A DNA stretch of 64,000 nucleotides, from contig NZ_JADYWW010000001.1 in assembly GCF_015864575.1 (NCBI RefSeq), positions 558,001 to 622,000 of the forward strand, read 5' to 3'. This DNA is from Salinibacterium sp. SWN248 (GTDB lineage: Bacteria > Actinomycetota > Actinomycetes > Actinomycetales > Microbacteriaceae). The position numbers and the translations under genes were made by a program. This document shows, one piece after another, positions 53,062-62,070 of this stretch (the stretch's first letter is position 1; each line of letters starts with the position of its first letter). The notes under the pieces are model-generated. The model did no database searches and had not been told where the DNA came from. It saw only the letters and a list, made by a program, of their open reading frames with translations.

Positions 53062-53390
53062 ATCCGCTCGGCCCTCGCTATTGAGGGCTCGATCGAGTAA
53101 CGTAGTCAAGTCGGCTCAAGACAGCGCGAAATCTCGCGTATGGGTTTGTAAGTCTTGCGGGCCGGTTTGCCAGTCCATCCAACTGGTGACAATCACACGA
53201 ATGTATGTGACGGCCTCGGTCAAAGACTGCCCGGGTTCAGTAGTGCAGCGTACGAATACTCAAGCTAATTAGAAGACAGCCAATCGGTTTCTAACCAATC
53301 GGTGTCTCGCTAACTAAATGGTGAGTGTTGGCGTGCGCGCGTGCTCCACGCACTAGATGTGTTCCATCTAAGAACAACCCGGAAAGAACA
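53062..53390. other. Non-coding leader region before the helicase gene
   Basis: No credible gene was found in this 329-bp stretch. It holds a direct repeat CCAATCGGT (53280-53288 and 53295-53303) and a short TGTTC-N7-GAACA dyad just before the helicase start. It may carry the promoter and a long 5' leader, as is common for DEAD-box and cold-shock genes. Confidence 0.5.
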
Positions 53391-55718
53391 ATGCCTAATT
53401 TCAATAAGCCTGCCACCGGTCGTGGCAACAAAAACTTCAACTCTGGAGCGCCCAAACGTGGCGGTTCACGCAGCGAAGGTCACCGCGGATTCCGTGCCGA
53501 TGAGGGCGATGCCCCCAAGCGTCGCTGGAGCGCGGATGACCGTGCCGCTCGCACCGGAGACCGCAAGCCAGGAGCCGCTCGTGGCGGACGCGACGAGCGT
53601 CGCCCCGACTGGACTCCCCGCGAAAAGCCTGCCCGTGGTGGACGCCCCGAGGCCGGCGGCCGCGGAGATCGCCCCTCCTACGGTGACCGCCCGCAGCGCA
53701 ACGAACGTGGCGCCTACGGCGACCGTCCCCAGCGCAGCAACGATCGTCCCTCGTCGGGTGACCGTCCCGAGCGCGGCGGACGCCCCACGTATGGCGACCG
53801 CAACGAGCGCCCGCAGCGCAGCAACGATCGCCCGTCTTACGGCGACCGTCCTGACCGCGGCGGCAACGCCGGTCGCAGTGAGCGTCCGTCGTACAACGAC
53901 CGCAATGACCGCAACGAGCGCCCGCAGCGCAGCAATGACCGTCCTTCGTATGGTGACCGCCCCGACCGTGGCGGCAACGCCGGTCGCAGCGAGCGTCCGT
54001 CGTACAACGACCGCAACTCGAGCGGCCGCAGCGAGCGTCCGTCGTACAACGACCGCAATGCTGGTGGCCGTTCAGAGCGTCCCTCCTACGGTGACCGCCC
54101 CGACCGCGGTGGCCGTCCCTCCTACAACGACCGCACTGAGCGTCCGTCGTACAACGATCGCAACGCTGGTCGCACTGAGCGTCCCTCGTACGGTGACCGC
54201 GGCGCATCCGCTGGTCGCACCGAGCGTCCGTCGTACAACGACCGTGCTCAGCGCACCGAGCGCCCCGCGTACGGTGACCGTCCCGACCGCGGTTCACGCC
54301 CCGAGCGTTCAGAGCGTCCCGCCTACAACGAGCGCCCGCAGCGTTCCGAGCGTCCCTCGTATGGCGACCGCCCCGACCGTGGTTCGCGCCCGTCGTACAA
54401 CGACCGCAATGACCGCAACGATCGTCCGCAGCGTTCAGAGCCGCGCGAAAGCGCCTACTACCCGGCCCGCGATGGCAAGTCGTCGCACTCGCAGCAAGAA
54501 GACGTTGTACTTGAGCGTCTCGTAGCCAAGACCGTTACCGCCAGCGATGTTGAAGGCAAGTCCTTCATCGACCTAGGCATCGGTTCGAACATTTCGCGTC
54601 AGCTCGCATCCATGGGCGCAGAGTCGCCGTTCCCCATCCAGGCAGCAACCATCCCCGACGTTCTCGCCGGCAAAGATGTTCTTGGCCGCGGAAAGACCGG
54701 ATCGGGCAAGACCATTGCTTTCGGTGCGCCCCTCGTTGAGCGCCTCATGGAAAACAACGGTGGCAAGGATCGTCAGATGGGTCGCAAGCCTCGCGCCCTC
54801 ATCCTCGCTCCGACCCGCGAACTTGCTCAGCAAATCGACCGCACCATTCAGCCCATCGCTCGCAGCGTTGGCCTGTTCACCACGACCATCGTGGGTGGCG
54901 TTCCTCAGTACAAGCAGGTTGCAGCTCTCACCCGTGGCGTCGATGTCATCATCGCGACCCCCGGCCGTGTTGAAGACCTCATCGAGCAGGGTCGTCTCGA
55001 CCTCAGCCAGGTGAAGGTTACTGTTCTCGACGAAGCAGACCACATGTGCGACCTCGGGTTCCTTGAGCCTGTTCAGCGCATTCTGCGTGAGACCAGCGAG
55101 GGCGGCCAGAAACTGCTGTTCTCGGCAACCCTCGACAAGGGTGTTGCCACTCTCGTCAAGGAATTCTTGGTTGACCCGGCCGTGCACGAGGTTGCTGGTG
55201 AAGACCAGGCTTCTTCCACGATCGACCACAAGGTTCTGCTGATCGAACAGCGCGACAAGCGTGCGATCATCAAGCAGCTTTCCGCCGGCACGGGCAAGAC
55301 TCTCGTCTTCACCCGCACGCGTGCGTTTGCTGAAGAGATGGCCGAATTCTTGAGCATGGGTGGAACCCCAGCCACGAGCCTTCACGGTGACCTCAACCAG
55401 TCGCGTCGTACCCGCAACCTGCAGATGCTTACGAGTGGCAAGGTCAACGTGCTTGTCGCGACAGACGTTGCAGCCCGCGGCATCCACGTGGATGACATCA
55501 GCCTCGTTATTCAGGCTGACGCTCCTGAGGAGTACAAGACGTACCTGCACCGCGCTGGCCGTACCGGTCGCGCAGGCAAGGCCGGAACTGTTGTCACGCT
55601 CATCCCGCGCAACCGTCGTCGCAAGATGGACGAACTCCTCGGCCGCGCCGAGATCGATGCAGAGTCGGTCGACGTAGCGCCTGGCGATTCGTTCGTCGAC
55701 AAGCTGGCTGCGCTCTAA
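53391..55718 (+). CDS. DEAD-box RNA helicase with repetitive disordered N-terminus
   Basis: 775 residues. Residues about 1-370 are a low-complexity Arg/Asp/Tyr/Pro-rich region built of repeats such as 'RPSYGDRPDRGG' and 'ERPSYNDRN' (about seven PSYNDR copies). The helicase core follows: Q-motif region 'SPFPIQAATIPDVLAGKDVLGRGKTGSGKT', 'PTRELAQQI', 'VLDEADHM' (547-550), 'LFSATLDKG' and 'HRAGRTGRAGK'. Bacterial RNA helicases usually bear such tails at the C-terminus. It probably unwinds RNA in the cold or in ribosome assembly, with the tail aiding RNA binding or condensation. Confidence 0.92.
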   Translation: MPNFNKPATGRGNKNFNSGAPKRGGSRSEGHRGFRADEGDAPKRRWSADDRAARTGDRKPGAARGGRDERRPDWTPREKPARGGRPEAGGRGDRPSYGDRPQRNERGAYGDRPQRSNDRPSSGDRPERGGRPTYGDRNERPQRSNDRPSYGDRPDRGGNAGRSERPSYNDRNDRNERPQRSNDRPSYGDRPDRGGNAGRSERPSYNDRNSSGRSERPSYNDRNAGGRSERPSYGDRPDRGGRPSYNDRTERPSYNDRNAGRTERPSYGDRGASAGRTERPSYNDRAQRTERPAYGDRPDRGSRPERSERPAYNERPQRSERPSYGDRPDRGSRPSYNDRNDRNDRPQRSEPRESAYYPARDGKSSHSQQEDVVLERLVAKTVTASDVEGKSFIDLGIGSNISRQLASMGAESPFPIQAATIPDVLAGKDVLGRGKTGSGKTIAFGAPLVERLMENNGGKDRQMGRKPRALILAPTRELAQQIDRTIQPIARSVGLFTTTIVGGVPQYKQVAALTRGVDVIIATPGRVEDLIEQGRLDLSQVKVTVLDEADHMCDLGFLEPVQRILRETSEGGQKLLFSATLDKGVATLVKEFLVDPAVHEVAGEDQASSTIDHKVLLIEQRDKRAIIKQLSAGTGKTLVFTRTRAFAEEMAEFLSMGGTPATSLHGDLNQSRRTRNLQMLTSGKVNVLVATDVAARGIHVDDISLVIQADAPEEYKTYLHRAGRTGRAGKAGTVVTLIPRNRRRKMDELLGRAEIDAESVDVAPGDSFVDKLAAL
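53660..54440 (+). repeat. Coding repeat array in the helicase N-terminus
   Basis: About 780 bp of imperfect 20-60-bp direct repeats with units such as cgtccgtcgtacaacgaccg. It keeps the reading frame throughout and lacks frameshifts, so it is selected at the protein level. Confidence 0.8.
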
Positions 55719-57244: not shown

Positions 57245-57787
57245 CTAGTTGGCGGCATCCGCCAAGACGGCTTTCAGTACAGCCCCAATTCTCGCGGGGA
57301 AGCTGTCGGGAACATTCTCGGGCAGAGCGTTCGTGGCGAACCAGCGCACGTCTTCACTTTCGTCGCTGGCCGCGAAGACGGCATCAGCGGCGGCAATGGC
57401 AACGAATCCCACATCCCAGTGAGCGGCGCACGCGAAGCCTCCGTGCAGCTCGTGCCGGTCAAGATCAACGATCGAGTCCGAGTGGAGGGCGAGGGCGGCA
57501 ATGCCCGACTCCTCACGAGCTTCGCGTAGTGCGGCATCCGCGACGGACGCATCCTGTGGCTCAATGTGGCCACCGAATTGAACCCAAAACTGTCCTTTGC
57601 GGTGAAAGCACAACAGCACGCGCTCGAAGCCAGGCGAGAAGACGAAACAGGATGCCGTCACATGCTCGGGCCCACCATCGCGCTTGAGCGCATCCGATCC
57701 GCCCGCCGTAACAAAGGAGAGGTAGGACTCGCGGGCGGGTGAAGCCGGGAGTGCGGCAAGGCTGGTCAGGAAGTCATCGACGATCAC
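57245..57787 (-). CDS. NUDIX hydrolase
   Basis: About 180 residues. The Nudix box is 'GGHIEPQDASVADAALREAREESGI' (GX5EX7REUXEEXGU), so it should hydrolyse a nucleoside diphosphate linked to another group, often for clean-up of damaged nucleotides. Start is uncertain: GTG at 57787 is chosen, with GTG at 57805 and longer frames possible. It is divergent from the kynurenine operon. Confidence 0.85.
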   Translation of the reverse strand: MIVDDFLTSLAALPASPARESYLSFVTAGGSDALKRDGGPEHVTASCFVFSPGFERVLLCFHRKGQFWVQFGGHIEPQDASVADAALREAREESGIAALALHSDSIVDLDRHELHGGFACAAHWDVGFVAIAAADAVFAASDESEDVRWFATNALPENVPDSFPARIGAVLKAVLADAAN

Positions 57788-57927
57788 TTGGCCATTATCC
57801 GATACGACGGTCTCGGCGTCGGAGTGGCAACCGCGGGAGACTTCATATGCACTCCTGCAGAGCAGTTGTGCAGAAACACGCGAACACAAGTGTGGCGGCC
57901 GTCGCAAAAGTGCAATAGGGTGTCGGC

Positions 57928-58785
57928 ATGTCGGATACTCATAACGAACGTGCCCTTGAAGACGAGATCATCACCGACTTTAGTAAGCGGATGTCGTACG
58001 GCGCCTACCTAGAACTCGACACCCTGCTGAGCGCCCAGGCTCCGCAAAGCACCCCTGAGCATCACGATGAGATGTTGTTCATCATCCAGCATCAGACCAC
58101 CGAGCTGTGGCTCAAGCTCGTGATCCACGAACTCACCTCGGCCCGCGATCTCATTGCGAGCGACAACCTCTCTATTGCGCTCAAGCGCATTGCACGCGTC
58201 AAGCACATTCAGCGCACCCTCACTGAGCAGTGGTCGGTGCTCGCGACTCTCACGCCGAGCGAGTATTCGCAGTTTCGCGACTACCTGGGTAGCTCATCCG
58301 GGTTCCAGTCGTATCAGTACCGAGCGGTCGAATTTCTGCTCGGCAACAAGAATGCGGGCATGCTCAAGGTGTTCGAATCGCATCCCGAAGCGCACGCCCT
58401 GCTCAGCAAGTTGCTCGCCGAGCCCAGCGTCTACGATGAGTTCTTGCGCTACCTCAGCCGCCACGGCTACGAGATTCCTGACGCCGTGCTTAACCGTGAC
58501 GTGACTCGCGGCTACGAGCAAAACGACGAGCTCATCGAGACCTTCCGTCACATCTACGACAACGAAAGCGAGCACTGGCTCGCCTACGAAGCCTGCGAAG
58601 AATTCGTTGACCTTGAAGACAACTTCCAGCTCTGGCGCTTCCGTCATATGAAGACCGTCATGCGCATCATTGGTATGAAACGCGGCACCGGCGGCTCGAG
58701 CGGCGTCGGCTTTCTCCAGAAGGCACTCGACCTCACCTTCTTCCCTGAACTCTTTGCCGTGCGCACCGAGATCGGCCGCTCGTGA
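57928..58785 (+). CDS. kynA: Tryptophan 2,3-dioxygenase
   Basis: 285 residues of the heme dioxygenase that opens the tryptophan indole ring to N-formylkynurenine. Strong motifs are '[16 protein letters not shown]', '[25 protein letters not shown]' with the distal-site histidine, '[17 protein letters not shown]' and '[13 protein letters not shown]' at the substrate site. AGGG lies 8 nt before the ATG. It is the first gene of a four-gene operon and overlaps the next by GTGA. Confidence 0.95.
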
Positions 58786-59963
58786 CCGAACAACCGAACC
58801 CAGCTCCGCAGCTCCCCACGGCGACCGGACCAACTACCGAGTCGGCCCTCACCGTCGACTACGCCGTCGACGGCTACTGGCTGCGTGAATGGCACGGCCC
58901 GGCCACAGTGCGGGTCAGCCCCCATGGCATTCGAGCGATAGCGGATTCCGCAATCCCGACCGCGGTGCGTCTTCCGGGAGTGCTGCTGCCGGGCTTTCGC
59001 GACGCACACGTGCATCTCGGATTGACGGAGCCGCGCGCTCTCGTGGCTGGCGGCCTCGCTGCGGTCGACGATTTGGGTGGGCATCCCGATCGTCTTCAGG
59101 AGTGGGCTCTTGACGATGCGGTTCCCGCGCTGAACCACGCGGGCGCTTTCATCACCGCGCCTCATGCTTACCCGGCGAATCGTGCGTGGGCGGCCACGCT
59201 TGCGGTTGCTGAAGTGGAGACCGGTGAGCAGGCGATGGCTGCGGTCGCGCGGCAGCTCGCCGCTGGTGCGACCTTTGTGAAGGTTGCGTTGAACGCTGAA
59301 GATGGCCCGGTCATTGACGATGAGACCTTGTGCGCACTGGTGGAATACGCGCACAGTCGCGGCGCCGAAGTTGTCGTTCATGTCCAGGGGCCTGGGCAAG
59401 CGCAGCGGGCGTTTTCTGCCGGAGCCGATCGCCTCGCGCACACGCCCTGGACAGAGAAACTCAGTGACGCCCTGATTGCTGAGATGGCGCAGCCGAACTC
59501 CCGCTTTCTTGCCGGACGCCACTCGTGGATCAGCACCCTCGACATCCACGGCTATGGCCAGCGTGGTCGCGACTTCGAGACTGCGAGCGACAACCTGCGA
59601 CGCTTTCACGCCGCGGGCGGCACCGTTCGTTATGGCACCGACATGGGCAATGGCGATCTTCCTCCCGGCCTCAACCAGCGCGAATTGACGGCGCTGCAGG
59701 ATGCCGGGGTGCGCTACGACGCCCTGTTGCGGGCGCTGTGTTTGCCCGGTTTCGGCAGCACCGTGAGCTACTTGCCGACGGTGCCGACCGCGGATGCCGA
59801 TCTCGCGTCGTGGCTCATGACCGCCACCGTTGTCACGGCCCGCGAGCTGCTTCACCCTGACTTTGCCGTGAGCGCGACCCGCGCGCACGCGGCTTGGGAC
59901 GGCGACAGCGCTGTTCCCACCGCAACAACCCCCATCCCGACCCCATGGAGGATCGACCTATGA
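58782..59963 (+). CDS. Amidohydrolase-superfamily protein, candidate N-formylkynurenine formamidase
   Basis: 393 residues from a GTG overlapping the kynA stop. Metal ligands of a binuclear amidohydrolase are all present: His76-x-His78 ('DAHVHLG'), Lys167 ('TFVKVAL'), His200 ('VVVHVQ'), His220 ('RLAHTPW') and Asp287 ('YGTDMGNG'). It lies exactly between kynA and kynU with ATGA overlap, where the formamidase step belongs. It is not related by sequence to KynB cyclase-type or alpha/beta-hydrolase formamidases. The family is broad (imidazolonepropionase/dihydroorotase-like), so the role rests on context. Confidence 0.8.
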
Positions 59964-61246
59964 CCGACACCCACGCGCCGACTGCTGCGCACGATGACGC
60001 GACGGCTGCGCCCACCGGAGCCAGCTCTCCCGTCGACACGAGCGCCGCAGCTGCCGCAGTCTTGGATGCCGCTGACCCGCTGAAGCAGTACCCGACCAAG
60101 TTTGTGCGATCAACCGAAGTGCGCGCCTACCTCGACGGCAACTCGCTCGGGCGACCCACGACCGCGAGTGCGGCCCGCTTAGCCGAGTTCGTTGACGAAC
60201 AGTGGGGTGGCCGCCTCATCCGTGGCTGGGATGAAGCGTGGTACGAACTGCCTCTCACTTTGGGTGACCGCCTGGGCGCCGCCACTCTCGGGGCTGCGCC
60301 CGGCCAAACCTTCATCGGCGACTCGACCACGGTGGTGCTCTACAAGCTGATCCGCGCTGGCCTCAGTGCCCGCCCGGAGCGCAGCGAAATCGTCATCGAC
60401 ACCGGCAACTTTCCGACCGACCGCTATCTGGTCGAGGGCATCGCCGCCGAGCTCGGCAAGACGCTGCGCTGGATCGATCCCGCCAGCGACGAGGGAGTCA
60501 CCGCCGACGAAGTGAAGGCTGTGCTCAACGAGAACACGGCTCTCGTCGTGATCAGTCACGTCGCCTACCGCTCTGGTCACCTCGCCGATATGCCCGGCAT
60601 CACCACCCTCGTCCACGAAGCCGGAGCGCTCGTGCTCTGGGATCTCTGCCACTCCGCCGGCGTCGTCGAAACCGAACTCGATGCCTGGGGCGTCGACCTG
60701 GCTGCTGGATGCACGTATAAATACCTCAACGGAGGCCCGGGTTCCCCCGCCTTCGGCTACGTGCGCGCCGAGCACATCGAAGCCATGACGCAACCGATCC
60801 AGGGCTGGATGGGTAGCAACAACCCCTTCGAAATGGGTCCAGGCTATGCGCCGCACGAAGGCATCCGTCGTTTCATCAGCGGCACGCCATCGGTCGTCGG
60901 TTCGCTCGCCATGCAAGACATGCTCGGGCTCATCGAAGAGGCAGGCATCCCGGCGATCCGCGCCAAGTCGATCGCTCTCACCGAGTACGCCCTCGCGCTC
61001 ATTGACGAACTGCTCGTGCCGCTCGGCGTCACCGTCAGCTCGCCGCGGGATGCCGCCGAACGCGGCAGCCACGTCACGATCGACCACGAGAGCTTCGCCG
61101 CCGTGAATGCCGAACTCTGGAAGCAGGGGATCATTCCTGACTTCCGTCGGCCTCACGGCATCCGCCTCGGGTTGTCGCCGCTCAGCACGACCTTCGCCGA
61201 AGTGCAGCTCGGCATCGAGGCCATTCACGCACAGCTCACCACGTAA
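59960..61246 (+). CDS. kynU: Kynureninase
   Basis: 428 residues from the ATG at 59960 (ATGA overlap). PLP-dependent cleavage of kynurenine to anthranilate and alanine. Signature stretches are 'YLDGNSLGRPTTAS', 'GRLIRGWDEAWYELPLTLGDRLG', 'GDSTTVVLYKLIRA', 'LWDLCHSAGVVE' and the PLP-lysine 'GCTYKYLNGGPGSPAF'. An N-terminal acidic lead of 30 residues is extra. It ends the pathway at anthranilate, with the next gene 5 bp away. Confidence 0.95.
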   Translation: MTDTHAPTAAHDDATAAPTGASSPVDTSAAAAAVLDAADPLKQYPTKFVRSTEVRAYLDGNSLGRPTTASAARLAEFVDEQWGGRLIRGWDEAWYELPLTLGDRLGAATLGAAPGQTFIGDSTTVVLYKLIRAGLSARPERSEIVIDTGNFPTDRYLVEGIAAELGKTLRWIDPASDEGVTADEVKAVLNENTALVVISHVAYRSGHLADMPGITTLVHEAGALVLWDLCHSAGVVETELDAWGVDLAAGCTYKYLNGGPGSPAFGYVRAEHIEAMTQPIQGWMGSNNPFEMGPGYAPHEGIRRFISGTPSVVGSLAMQDMLGLIEEAGIPAIRAKSIALTEYALALIDELLVPLGVTVSSPRDAAERGSHVTIDHESFAAVNAELWKQGIIPDFRRPHGIRLGLSPLSTTFAEVQLGIEAIHAQLTT

Positions 61247-61251
61247 CCGCC

Positions 61252-62070
61252 ATGATTCTGGATGACTTCGACTCCCGCCCCGGGAGTGCAACAGCCCTGC
61301 TCCGCACCTTTGTGGGCTCGCAGCTGCGTCAGCTTGGCGGCTGGATCTCGTCGGCGCATCTCGTGCGCATCATGGAAGCGTTGGGAGTCTCTGCCAATGG
61401 CGCCCGCAGCGCCATTGCACGCGTTAAATCAAAGGGCCTGCTGGTGCCTGAAATGGTCGATGGCCAACAGGGCTACCGTGTGAACGCGGATGCCGTGCCG
61501 ATGCTCGAGAGTGGCGATCGCCGTGTCTTCAGCTTTCGCCAGCAGCGCGAAGATGACCCGTGGTGTCTGATCTCGTTTTCGATCCCCGAATCACGCCGCG
61601 ATGAACGCCACCAGCTTCGTCGCAGGCTCGGCTGGATCGGGTGCGGCACCGTCGCCACCGGGCTCTGGATTTGCCCGGCGCACCTCAAGCCAGAAGTGGT
61701 GCGCATTCTGGAACACCTCGAACTGAGTGAGTGCGCAACGCTGTTTATTGCGGGCCGGCCCGAGACGACTCAGTCGTTCGCGGATGCCGTAGCCCAGTGG
61801 TGGGACCTCGACCGCTTGCGTGAATTGCACGACAGTTTTCTGGCCCAGCACTCCGCCCTGGTGGGCCCGGCGTCGACCGATGCTGAAGCATTCGCGTGCT
61901 ACATCCATGCTCTCGATCAGTGGCGTGTGATCCCGTACGTCGATCCGGGGTTGCCGGATTCTGCGTTGCCCGAGGATTGGCCGGGGCGAGCAAGCATCGA
62001 CCTTTTCGGTCGACTTTCGCGTTCGTTGGCGGCGCGGGCGCACGCTTTTGTGCGCAACTCGGCCCAGTAA
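61252..62070 (+). CDS. PaaX-family transcriptional regulator
   Basis: 272 residues. N-terminal winged HTH ('LGGWISSAHLVRIMEALGVSANGARSAIARVKSKGLL'), central Cas2-like domain ('DPWCLISFSIPESRRDERHQLRRRLGWIGCGTVATGLWICP') and C-terminal domain fit PaaX, whose classical member answers to phenylacetyl-CoA. Here it closes the kynurenine operon, so it probably controls it, sensing kynurenine or anthranilate or its CoA ester. That effector is inference. Confidence 0.88.
   Translation: MILDDFDSRPGSATALLRTFVGSQLRQLGGWISSAHLVRIMEALGVSANGARSAIARVKSKGLLVPEMVDGQQGYRVNADAVPMLESGDRRVFSFRQQREDDPWCLISFSIPESRRDERHQLRRRLGWIGCGTVATGLWICPAHLKPEVVRILEHLELSECATLFIAGRPETTQSFADAVAQWWDLDRLRELHDSFLAQHSALVGPASTDAEAFACYIHALDQWRVIPYVDPGLPDSALPEDWPGRASIDLFGRLSRSLAARAHAFVRNSAQ

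What the first reader, a model, noticed from the sequence alone, without database searches (positions are those of the whole stretch)
57928..62070. Possible new class of N-formylkynurenine formamidase in the kynurenine operon
Seen: kynA, an amidohydrolase-superfamily gene and kynU are joined by GTGA and ATGA overlaps, and the middle protein keeps every binuclear metal ligand (His76, His78, Lys167, His200, His220, Asp287). Known: bacterial formamidases are KynB cyclase-type or alpha/beta-hydrolases. Inferred: this protein replaces them as a non-homologous enzyme. No other formamidase is seen in the operon.
Basis: partly seen in the sequence, partly recalled or inferred. Interest (0 to 1): 0.75.

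Follow-up and report, generated by a model that had tools for sequence, protein, structure and literature searches.

The report
Amidohydrolase in the kynurenine operon slot
A metal-dependent amidohydrolase gene sits between the first and third genes of a bacterial tryptophan-breakdown operon and most likely does the missing middle step, removing formate from N-formylkynurenine, a job that in other organisms is done by unrelated enzymes.

Summary
kynA (57928-58785), an amidohydrolase gene "AH" (58782-59963) and kynU (59960-61246) overlap at GTGA and ATGA, and AH keeps His76, His78, Lys167, His200, His220 and Asp287. A PaaX-type regulator follows. Of 79 relatives from other genomes, 63 lie kynA-AH-kynU and 11 more lie next to kynA. 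In 160 family genomes 36 of 42 AH genomes have kynA, and all 36 carry AH directly downstream of it. Some kynA genomes without AH carry an AFMID-like alpha/beta-hydrolase in the operon instead; at the thresholds used none of 53 (family) or 181 (class) kynA genomes has both. The window genome has no KynB over cut-off: its two cyclase-family proteins score 37 and 79 bits against 223. AH belongs to the prolidase/ochratoxinase branch of the amidohydrolase superfamily. So AH is most likely a further, non-homologous N-formylkynurenine formamidase of Actinomycetota. No activity has been shown. A 513-aa amidohydrolase was already proposed for this step in mycemycin biosynthesis; its homology to AH was not tested.

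The parts
57928..58785 (+). kynA, tryptophan 2,3-dioxygenase (285 aa), makes N-formylkynurenine
   Evidence: TIGR03036 404.8 bits over cut-off 390.7; Pfam Trp_dioxygenase
58782..58785 (+). GTGA overlap: kynA stop TGA overlaps the AH start GTG
   Evidence: sequence
58782..59963 (+). AH, amidohydrolase-superfamily protein (393 aa), proposed N-formylkynurenine formamidase
   Evidence: Pfam Amidohydro_1 24.5 bits, cut-off 25; profile hits to ochratoxin amidohydrolase and carboxypeptidase structures; AlphaFold2 model pLDDT 85.8 with PDB matches
59007..59015 (+). HxH metal motif, codons of His76 and His78
59280..59282 (+). codon of Lys167, inferred carboxylated bridging lysine
59379..59381 (+). codon of His200, metal ligand (inferred)
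59439..59441 (+). codon of His220, metal ligand (inferred)
59640..59642 (+). codon of Asp287, metal ligand and general base/acid (inferred)
59960..59963 (+). ATGA overlap: AH stop TGA overlaps the kynU start ATG
   Evidence: sequence
59960..61246 (+). kynU, kynureninase (428 aa), makes anthranilate
   Evidence: TIGR01814 234.5 bits (cut-off 246.4), KYNU_C over cut-off
61252..62070 (+). PaaX-family transcriptional regulator (272 aa), likely regulator of the operon (inferred)
   Evidence: three PaaX Pfam domains over cut-off; a homologue lies in 46 of 79 relative loci

Best explanation
AH is the N-formylkynurenine formamidase (EC 3.5.1.9) of this tryptophan-to-anthranilate operon. KynA opens the indole ring to N-formyl-L-kynurenine, AH hydrolyses the aryl formamide to L-kynurenine and formate, and KynU splits kynurenine to anthranilate and alanine. 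Inferred mechanism, by analogy with binuclear amidohydrolases: two divalent metals are held by His76, His78, carboxylated Lys167, His200, His220 and Asp287; the bridging hydroxide attacks the formyl carbon and Asp287 passes the proton to the aniline nitrogen. Other residues invariant in the 33-row alignment (Tyr130, Trp136, Arg209, His256, Asn290) are candidates for binding the amino-acid end. Shown by computation: operon place, ligand residues, fold class, co-occurrence, exchange with an alpha/beta-hydrolase. Inferred: substrate, metal content, mechanism.
For: Gene order: 63 of 79 loci kynA-AH-kynU, 11 kynA-AH with kynU not next, 2 AH-kynU, 3 neither. Phyletic profile in 160 family genomes: 36 of 42 AH genomes have kynA, against 17 kynA genomes among the 118 without AH (Fisher p 8e-17), and 36 of 36 lie directly downstream of kynA on the same strand. 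In the class sample 11 of 12 strong AH genes lie beside kynA by their coordinates; the twelfth (G185) lies beside kynU. Slot exchange: in G321, G386 and G408 (same family, kynA without AH) an alpha/beta-hydrolase gene overlaps kynU or kynA, homologous to the gene after kynU in the large-genome group f25/g31. AH and this hydrolase do not co-occur in kynA genomes at the thresholds used: 0 of 53 (family; p 5e-4) and 0 of 181 (class; p 3e-6). Ligands are invariant in 33 of 33 rows and fall on the matching stretches of three solved amide hydrolases. KynB is not the partner: no TIGR03035 hit over cut-off in 296 class genomes, 1 in 160 family genomes; 14 of 36 kynA+AH+ genomes have no KynB-like hit even at 1e-10.
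Against: No biochemical evidence. Six of 42 AH genomes lack any TDO; four of these keep AH-kynU, but G329 and G401 have AH with neither kynA nor kynU beside it, so the substrate may be wider or may have shifted there. L009 has AH with 5.9 kb upstream and no kynA. The window genome holds two PF04199 proteins that could in principle be formamidases, and the TIGR03035 cut-off is strict (0 of 14 control genomes pass it). Eleven of 53 kynA family genomes and 55 of 181 kynA class genomes have neither AH nor the alpha/beta-hydrolase. In the family sample that hydrolase family does not track kynA (6 of 53 against 14 of 107, p 1.0), though in the class sample it does (114 of 181 against 21 of 115, p 2e-14); G441, which has AH but no kynA, also has a member (175 bits). 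Fisher tests here ignore relatedness. In the large samples genome search scored only part of its first-look candidates (8 or 16 for the hydrolase); in the window genome all 37 were scored.
Confidence: 0.85

Rival explanations
1. Deformylation comes last: KynU cleaves N-formylkynurenine directly to N-formylanthranilate, and AH is an N-formylanthranilate deformylase.
For: Same operon and same bond type. AH stays coupled to kynU without kynA in four family genomes. One paper draws kynureninase acting on N-formylkynurenine to give formylanthranilate (PMC9058172, passages).
Against: Some relatives carry an AFMID-like enzyme in the operon in place of AH; AFMID acts on N-formylkynurenine (recalled). 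AH lies between kynA and kynU in 63 of 79 loci, and in 11 more it stays beside kynA while kynU is not next.
Confidence: 0.06
2. AH is a peptidase or carboxypeptidase, or acts on another acyl-kynurenine or acyl-tryptophan, as a feeder to the operon, and formamidase work is done by one of the genome's two cyclase-family proteins.
For: Nearest solved structures are prolidases, an arginine carboxypeptidase and ochratoxin amidohydrolases. Two PF04199 proteins exist in the genome. AH stands without kyn genes in G329 and G401.
Against: KynB-like hits do not track kynA (27 of 53 kynA genomes against 44 of 107 others, p 0.31) while AH does; 14 of 36 kynA+AH+ genomes lack a KynB-like hit at 1e-10. The two cyclases score 37 and 79 bits against a cut-off of 223 and lie far from the operon.
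Confidence: 0.06
3. AH is aminocarboxymuconate semialdehyde decarboxylase (ACMSD), an amidohydrolase-superfamily enzyme of the 3-hydroxyanthranilate branch.
For: Same superfamily and the same broad pathway (recalled).
Against: No match to Amidohydro_2 (recalled as the ACMSD family) at E 0.1 or better. 3-hydroxyanthranilate dioxygenase is not found in the window genome; of 29 kynA+AH+ genomes given (of 36) 1 has it over cut-off and 1 more has a weak hit (0 of 14 controls ring). AH has the lysine-bridged ligand set.
Confidence: 0.01
4. AH is an inactive remnant or a chance neighbour.
For: It evolves faster than kynA and kynU (87% against 96% and 94% identity over codons aligned to L003).
Against: dN/dS 0.11, invariant ligands, conserved order across several actinobacterial families.
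Confidence: 0.01

Closest known systems
KynB, cyclase-family bacterial kynurenine formamidase (PF04199 / TIGR03035)
   Same: Reaction (proposed), metal-dependent hydrolysis, place in kyn operons; one family genome, G314, has a KynB over cut-off beside kynU
   Different: Unrelated family: AH has no PF04199 match. PMC4243253 (passages) says KynB matches no known amidase or amidohydrolase.
AFMID / alpha/beta-hydrolase formamidase; in actinobacteria the protein beside kynA-kynU (SCO3644 of S. coelicolor, recalled)
   Same: Lies in the same operon in some kynA genomes where AH is absent
   Different: Alpha/beta-hydrolase (BD-FAE), a family AH does not match; serine mechanism (recalled), no binuclear metal site
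Ochratoxin A amidohydrolases (ADH3, LlADH) and prolidase/arginine carboxypeptidase group of the amidohydrolase superfamily
   Same: Fold and ligand motifs: HxH, Lys, His, His, Asp
   Different: 13-22% identity in the 50 best structure matches; AH has invariant residues of its own such as His256 and Asn290; some AH members have a much reduced N-terminal part (e.g. L014, L017, L042, L050); other substrates
MymD/MyeD, amidohydrolase of mycemycin biosynthesis in Streptomyces
   Same: Called an amidohydrolase and proposed to cleave the amide of (chloro-)N-formylkynurenine; the myeD deletion lost mycemycins A and B (PMC5867642, passages and the tables section)
   Different: 513 aa; activity not shown (MymD was expressed as inclusion bodies). 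Homology with AH was not tested; the sequence was not fetched.

Membership tests
Amidohydrolase superfamily (prolidase/ochratoxinase branch) | Barrel fold with HxH, Lys, His, His, Asp ligands | tested here: met
   Ligands at 76/78/167/200/220/287, invariant in 33 rows; aligned to solved members; model pLDDT 85.8, Foldseek E 3e-17 to 5e-17 to 2p9b, 8j85, 2qs8
Amidohydrolase superfamily (prolidase/ochratoxinase branch) | Score over the curated family cut-off | tested here: inconclusive
   PF01979 24.5 bits, cut-off 25
Amidohydrolase superfamily (prolidase/ochratoxinase branch) | Bound binuclear metal and lysine carboxylation | not testable with these tools
   needs protein
KynB (TIGR03035) | Cyclase-family profile match | tested here: not met
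   AH: no match. The genome's PF04199 proteins: 37.3 and 78.9 bits, cut-off 223.05
AFMID / alpha/beta-hydrolase formamidase | Alpha/beta-hydrolase fold match | tested here: not met
   AH has no such Pfam match; best match in the genome to profile A2 is a partial 56-bit hit
N-formylkynurenine formamidase (EC 3.5.1.9), by function | Gene in the kynA-kynU operon, not found together with another recognised formamidase | tested here: met
   at the thresholds used; weak KynB-like proteins do occur elsewhere in 22 of 36 kynA+AH+ genomes
N-formylkynurenine formamidase (EC 3.5.1.9), by function | Hydrolysis of N-formyl-L-kynurenine | not testable with these tools
   needs an assay
ACMSD | Amidohydro_2 match and 3-hydroxyanthranilate dioxygenase partner | tested here: not met
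   no Amidohydro_2 match; 3-HAO not found in the window genome, over cut-off in 1 of 29 AH genomes given

The most novel reading that the evidence does not exclude
In these actinobacteria the order of steps is changed: kynureninase takes N-formylkynurenine itself, and AH removes the formyl group afterwards from N-formylanthranilate, giving a kynurenine-free route from tryptophan to anthranilate; the AH-kynU pairs without kynA would then be salvage units for the same route.
Probability: 0.06. Interest if true: 0.8.

Novelty: new variant of a known kind. Interest (0 to 1): 0.62.

Why it matters
It would fill the formamidase step for a group of Actinomycetota in which the kyn operon holds neither KynB nor an AFMID-type enzyme, add another unrelated fold to the known ways of doing this reaction, and let annotators name a protein for which NCBIfam has no model over cut-off. 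It is directly testable with one purified protein.

Tried and rejected
KynB in the genome: two PF04199 proteins found and rejected as KynB by score. AFMID-type enzyme in the genome: no good match. ACMSD: rejected. Weaker AH homologues of 163-183 bits in nine class genomes were not counted as AH; all nine genomes also have kynA, and in the four whose kynA place is listed it is on another contig. Four of them (L118-L121) form a clade apart from the kyn-linked AH, and the neighbours scanned for three of the four (L118, L119, L121) have no kyn link. Whether they act on the same substrate is open. A first ORF caller and an all-against-all ORF clustering were too noisy with antisense frames; a codon-based caller replaced them. 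That caller starts AH of the window too late; the open frame, the overlap with kynA and the L003 relative support the GTG at 58782.

Paper searches for an amidohydrolase-type kynurenine formamidase: in an open-licence library. The only related item found was the mycemycin proposal (PMC5867642). Zummo 2012 and Kurnasov 2003 are not held; what I say of SCO3644 is recalled, and their titles were seen in the reference list of PMC4243253. PMC10608976, the only paper with kynurenine, Microbacterium and formamidase, was looked at by passages and speaks of a cyclase-type arylformamidase in Achromobacter.

Not tested: other amidase families (FmdA/AmdA, nitrilase type) in the genome; transcription; metal content.
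Full report
What is there. The window lies in a 3.05-Mb genome, 99.92% complete, at C1:558001-622000. Its closest named relatives are Salinibacterium (Microbacteriaceae). kynA (57928-58785), AH (58782-59963), kynU (59960-61246) and a PaaX-type regulator (61252-62070) run in one direction, with GTGA and ATGA overlaps at the first two joints and 5 bases at the third. kynA is over the TIGR03036 cut-off; kynU is under the TIGR01814 cut-off (234.5 against 246.4) but over that of Pfam KYNU_C; AH matches Amidohydro_1 just under its cut-off and no NCBIfam model over cut-off.

AH itself. In an alignment of 33 AH proteins (the window and 32 of the 79 relatives) all six ligands and Asp74 are invariant, together with Tyr130, Trp136, Arg209, Thr252, His256, Asn271, Asn290 and Glu301. 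A profile of that alignment finds ochratoxin A amidohydrolases, an arginine carboxypeptidase and prolidases among solved structures, and in the three printed alignments the HxH, Lys, His, His and Asp stretches fall on each other. AlphaFold2 gives mean pLDDT 85.8, and Foldseek returns the same group (2p9b, 8j85, 2qs8, 3mtw; E 3e-17 to 7e-17). So the protein is a member of the amidohydrolase superfamily, close to enzymes that cut amide bonds beside amino acids. Carboxylation of Lys167 and the metals are inferred.

Conservation of the operon. One scan of species genomes, which finds close relatives only, gave 79 relatives. Many are Microbacterium; others include Promicromonospora, Myceligenerans, Thermomonospora, Nocardioides, Kineosporia, Microlunatus, Conexibacter and Aurantimicrobium. 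63 of 79 are kynA-AH-kynU, 11 are kynA-AH with kynU not next (in 7 of these kynU lies further downstream in the locus), 2 are AH-kynU without kynA in the locus, and 3 are neither. Of those 3, L081 is a contig-end fragment, L080 is partly masked and has a kynA 1.8 kb upstream, and L009 is cut downstream but shows 5.9 kb upstream without kynA, a real exception. By my gene caller both joints overlap in Thermomonospora and Nocardioides, and the AH-kynU joint in Conexibacter. AH is under purifying selection (dN/dS 0.11), though it changes faster than its neighbours.

Phyletic profile. In 160 genomes of the family, 53 have kynA (E 1e-50 or better) and 42 have AH (1e-40 or better). 36 have both, and in 36 of 36 AH follows kynA on the same strand. 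Of the 17 kynA genomes without AH, six have an AFMID-like alpha/beta-hydrolase (profile A2, 1e-25 or better), five of them close to kynA (G321, G361, G386, G408, G446) and one far off (G430), and 11 have neither; none of the 53 has both. Of the 11, eight have the divergent kynA seen at 228-258 bits and one (G433, L135) has a broken AH in place. In G321 and G386 the hydrolase gene overlaps kynU, and in G408 it overlaps kynA; these three proteins are 49-52% identical to one another and homologous to the gene after kynU in a large-genome group, f25/g31 (kynA-kynU-X order printed for six loci, and a seventh, L086, has kynU and the homologue). In Streptomyces coelicolor that gene, SCO3644, has been reported as the formamidase (recalled), and in S. 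roseosporus Orf3245, Orf3244 and Orf3243 are named as TDO, kynureninase and formamidase (PMC9058172, passages).

In 296 class genomes, 181 have kynA (E 0.001 or better); 12 of these have AH at about 288 bits or more, 114 have the hydrolase, none has both, and 55 have neither. Eleven of the 12 lie beside kynA and the twelfth (G185) beside kynU. Five genomes are in both samples. The pattern is that of two unrelated hydrolases exchanged for one step. Limits: in the family sample the hydrolase family does not itself track kynA (6 of 53 against 14 of 107, p 1.0), while in the class sample it does (114 of 181 against 21 of 115, p 2e-14); so members outside kyn operons may do other work. G441, with AH and kynU but no kynA, also has such a protein elsewhere. 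The tests ignore relatedness, and the two large searches scored only part of the first-look candidates.

KynB. No class genome and one family genome (G314) has a KynB over its cut-off; the cut-off is strict, as 0 of 14 control genomes pass it either. G314 has it beside kynU and has no TDO, much the layout of AH-kynU in G299, G441, G330 and G402, which also lack TDO; G314 also has an A2-type hydrolase elsewhere. The window genome's two cyclase-family proteins score 37.3 and 78.9 bits against 223.05. Weak KynB-like hits do not track kynA (27 of 53 against 44 of 107, p 0.31), and 14 of 36 kynA+AH+ genomes have none at 1e-10.

Against the reading. No activity is shown. In G329 and G401 AH stands without kynA or kynU, in G329 near a GH18 gene and a FecCD-type transporter; a tree puts both in a clade with Promicromonospora, Myceligenerans and Conexibacter AH, so an AH may have been kept for another purpose. 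Many genomes with kynA have no recognised formamidase at all.

Other readings. N-formylanthranilate as the true substrate cannot be excluded by sequence. ACMSD is unlikely: no Amidohydro_2 match, and of 29 kynA+AH+ genomes given (of 36) only G117 has 3-HAO over cut-off and G410 a weak hit, the window's own none.

Known or new. Eight paper searches found no report of an amidohydrolase-superfamily kynurenine formamidase in kyn operons. The nearest is the mycemycin paper, which proposes amidohydrolase MymD/MyeD (513 aa) for N-formylkynurenine and shows that deleting myeD stops production of mycemycins A and B; MymD was expressed only as inclusion bodies, and in my reading the mutant does not show which step is lost (PMC5867642, passages and tables section). 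I rate the case as a new variant of a known kind: a known step, done by a family not known for it.

Noticed in passing
window 61252-62070: PaaX-family regulator next to kynU; a homologue lies in 46 of 79 relative loci, so it may control the operon in response to a tryptophan metabolite.
   Followed up: partly
L124:4946-5968, L125:4917-5954: AH in two genomes of one genus without kynA or kynU beside it and without TDO in the genome; the metal motifs are kept. The substrate there is open.
   Followed up: partly
L122, L123, L126, L127: AH overlapping or directly beside kynU in genomes with no TDO, with an alpha-L-arabinofuranosidase near it in L122 and a methyltransferase homologue in all four.
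   Followed up: partly
L141:3745-5633 (G314): The only KynB over cut-off in the family sample lies beside kynU, again with no TDO in the genome.
   Followed up: partly
L118-L121 and G052, G140, G150, G160, G170: Weaker AH homologues (163-183 bits) in nine class genomes that also have kynA but, where places are listed, on another contig; their role is unknown.
   Followed up: partly
L135:4577-4978 (G433): AH between kynA and kynU appears broken: only a 133-aa open part resembles AH. Described only.
   Followed up: no
L136, L138, L139, L140: Small Microbacteriaceae genomes (1.3-1.5 Mb) have a divergent kynA beside kynU and neither AH nor the AFMID-like hydrolase at the thresholds used; their formamidase is unknown.
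   Followed up: no
window 53325-55718: A DEAD-box helicase-like protein with a very long N-terminal repeat rich in RPSYGDRPDR-type units (helicase name from reading the sequence, not from a search).
   Followed up: no
window 57245-57907: NUDIX hydrolase gene divergent from kynA.
   Followed up: no
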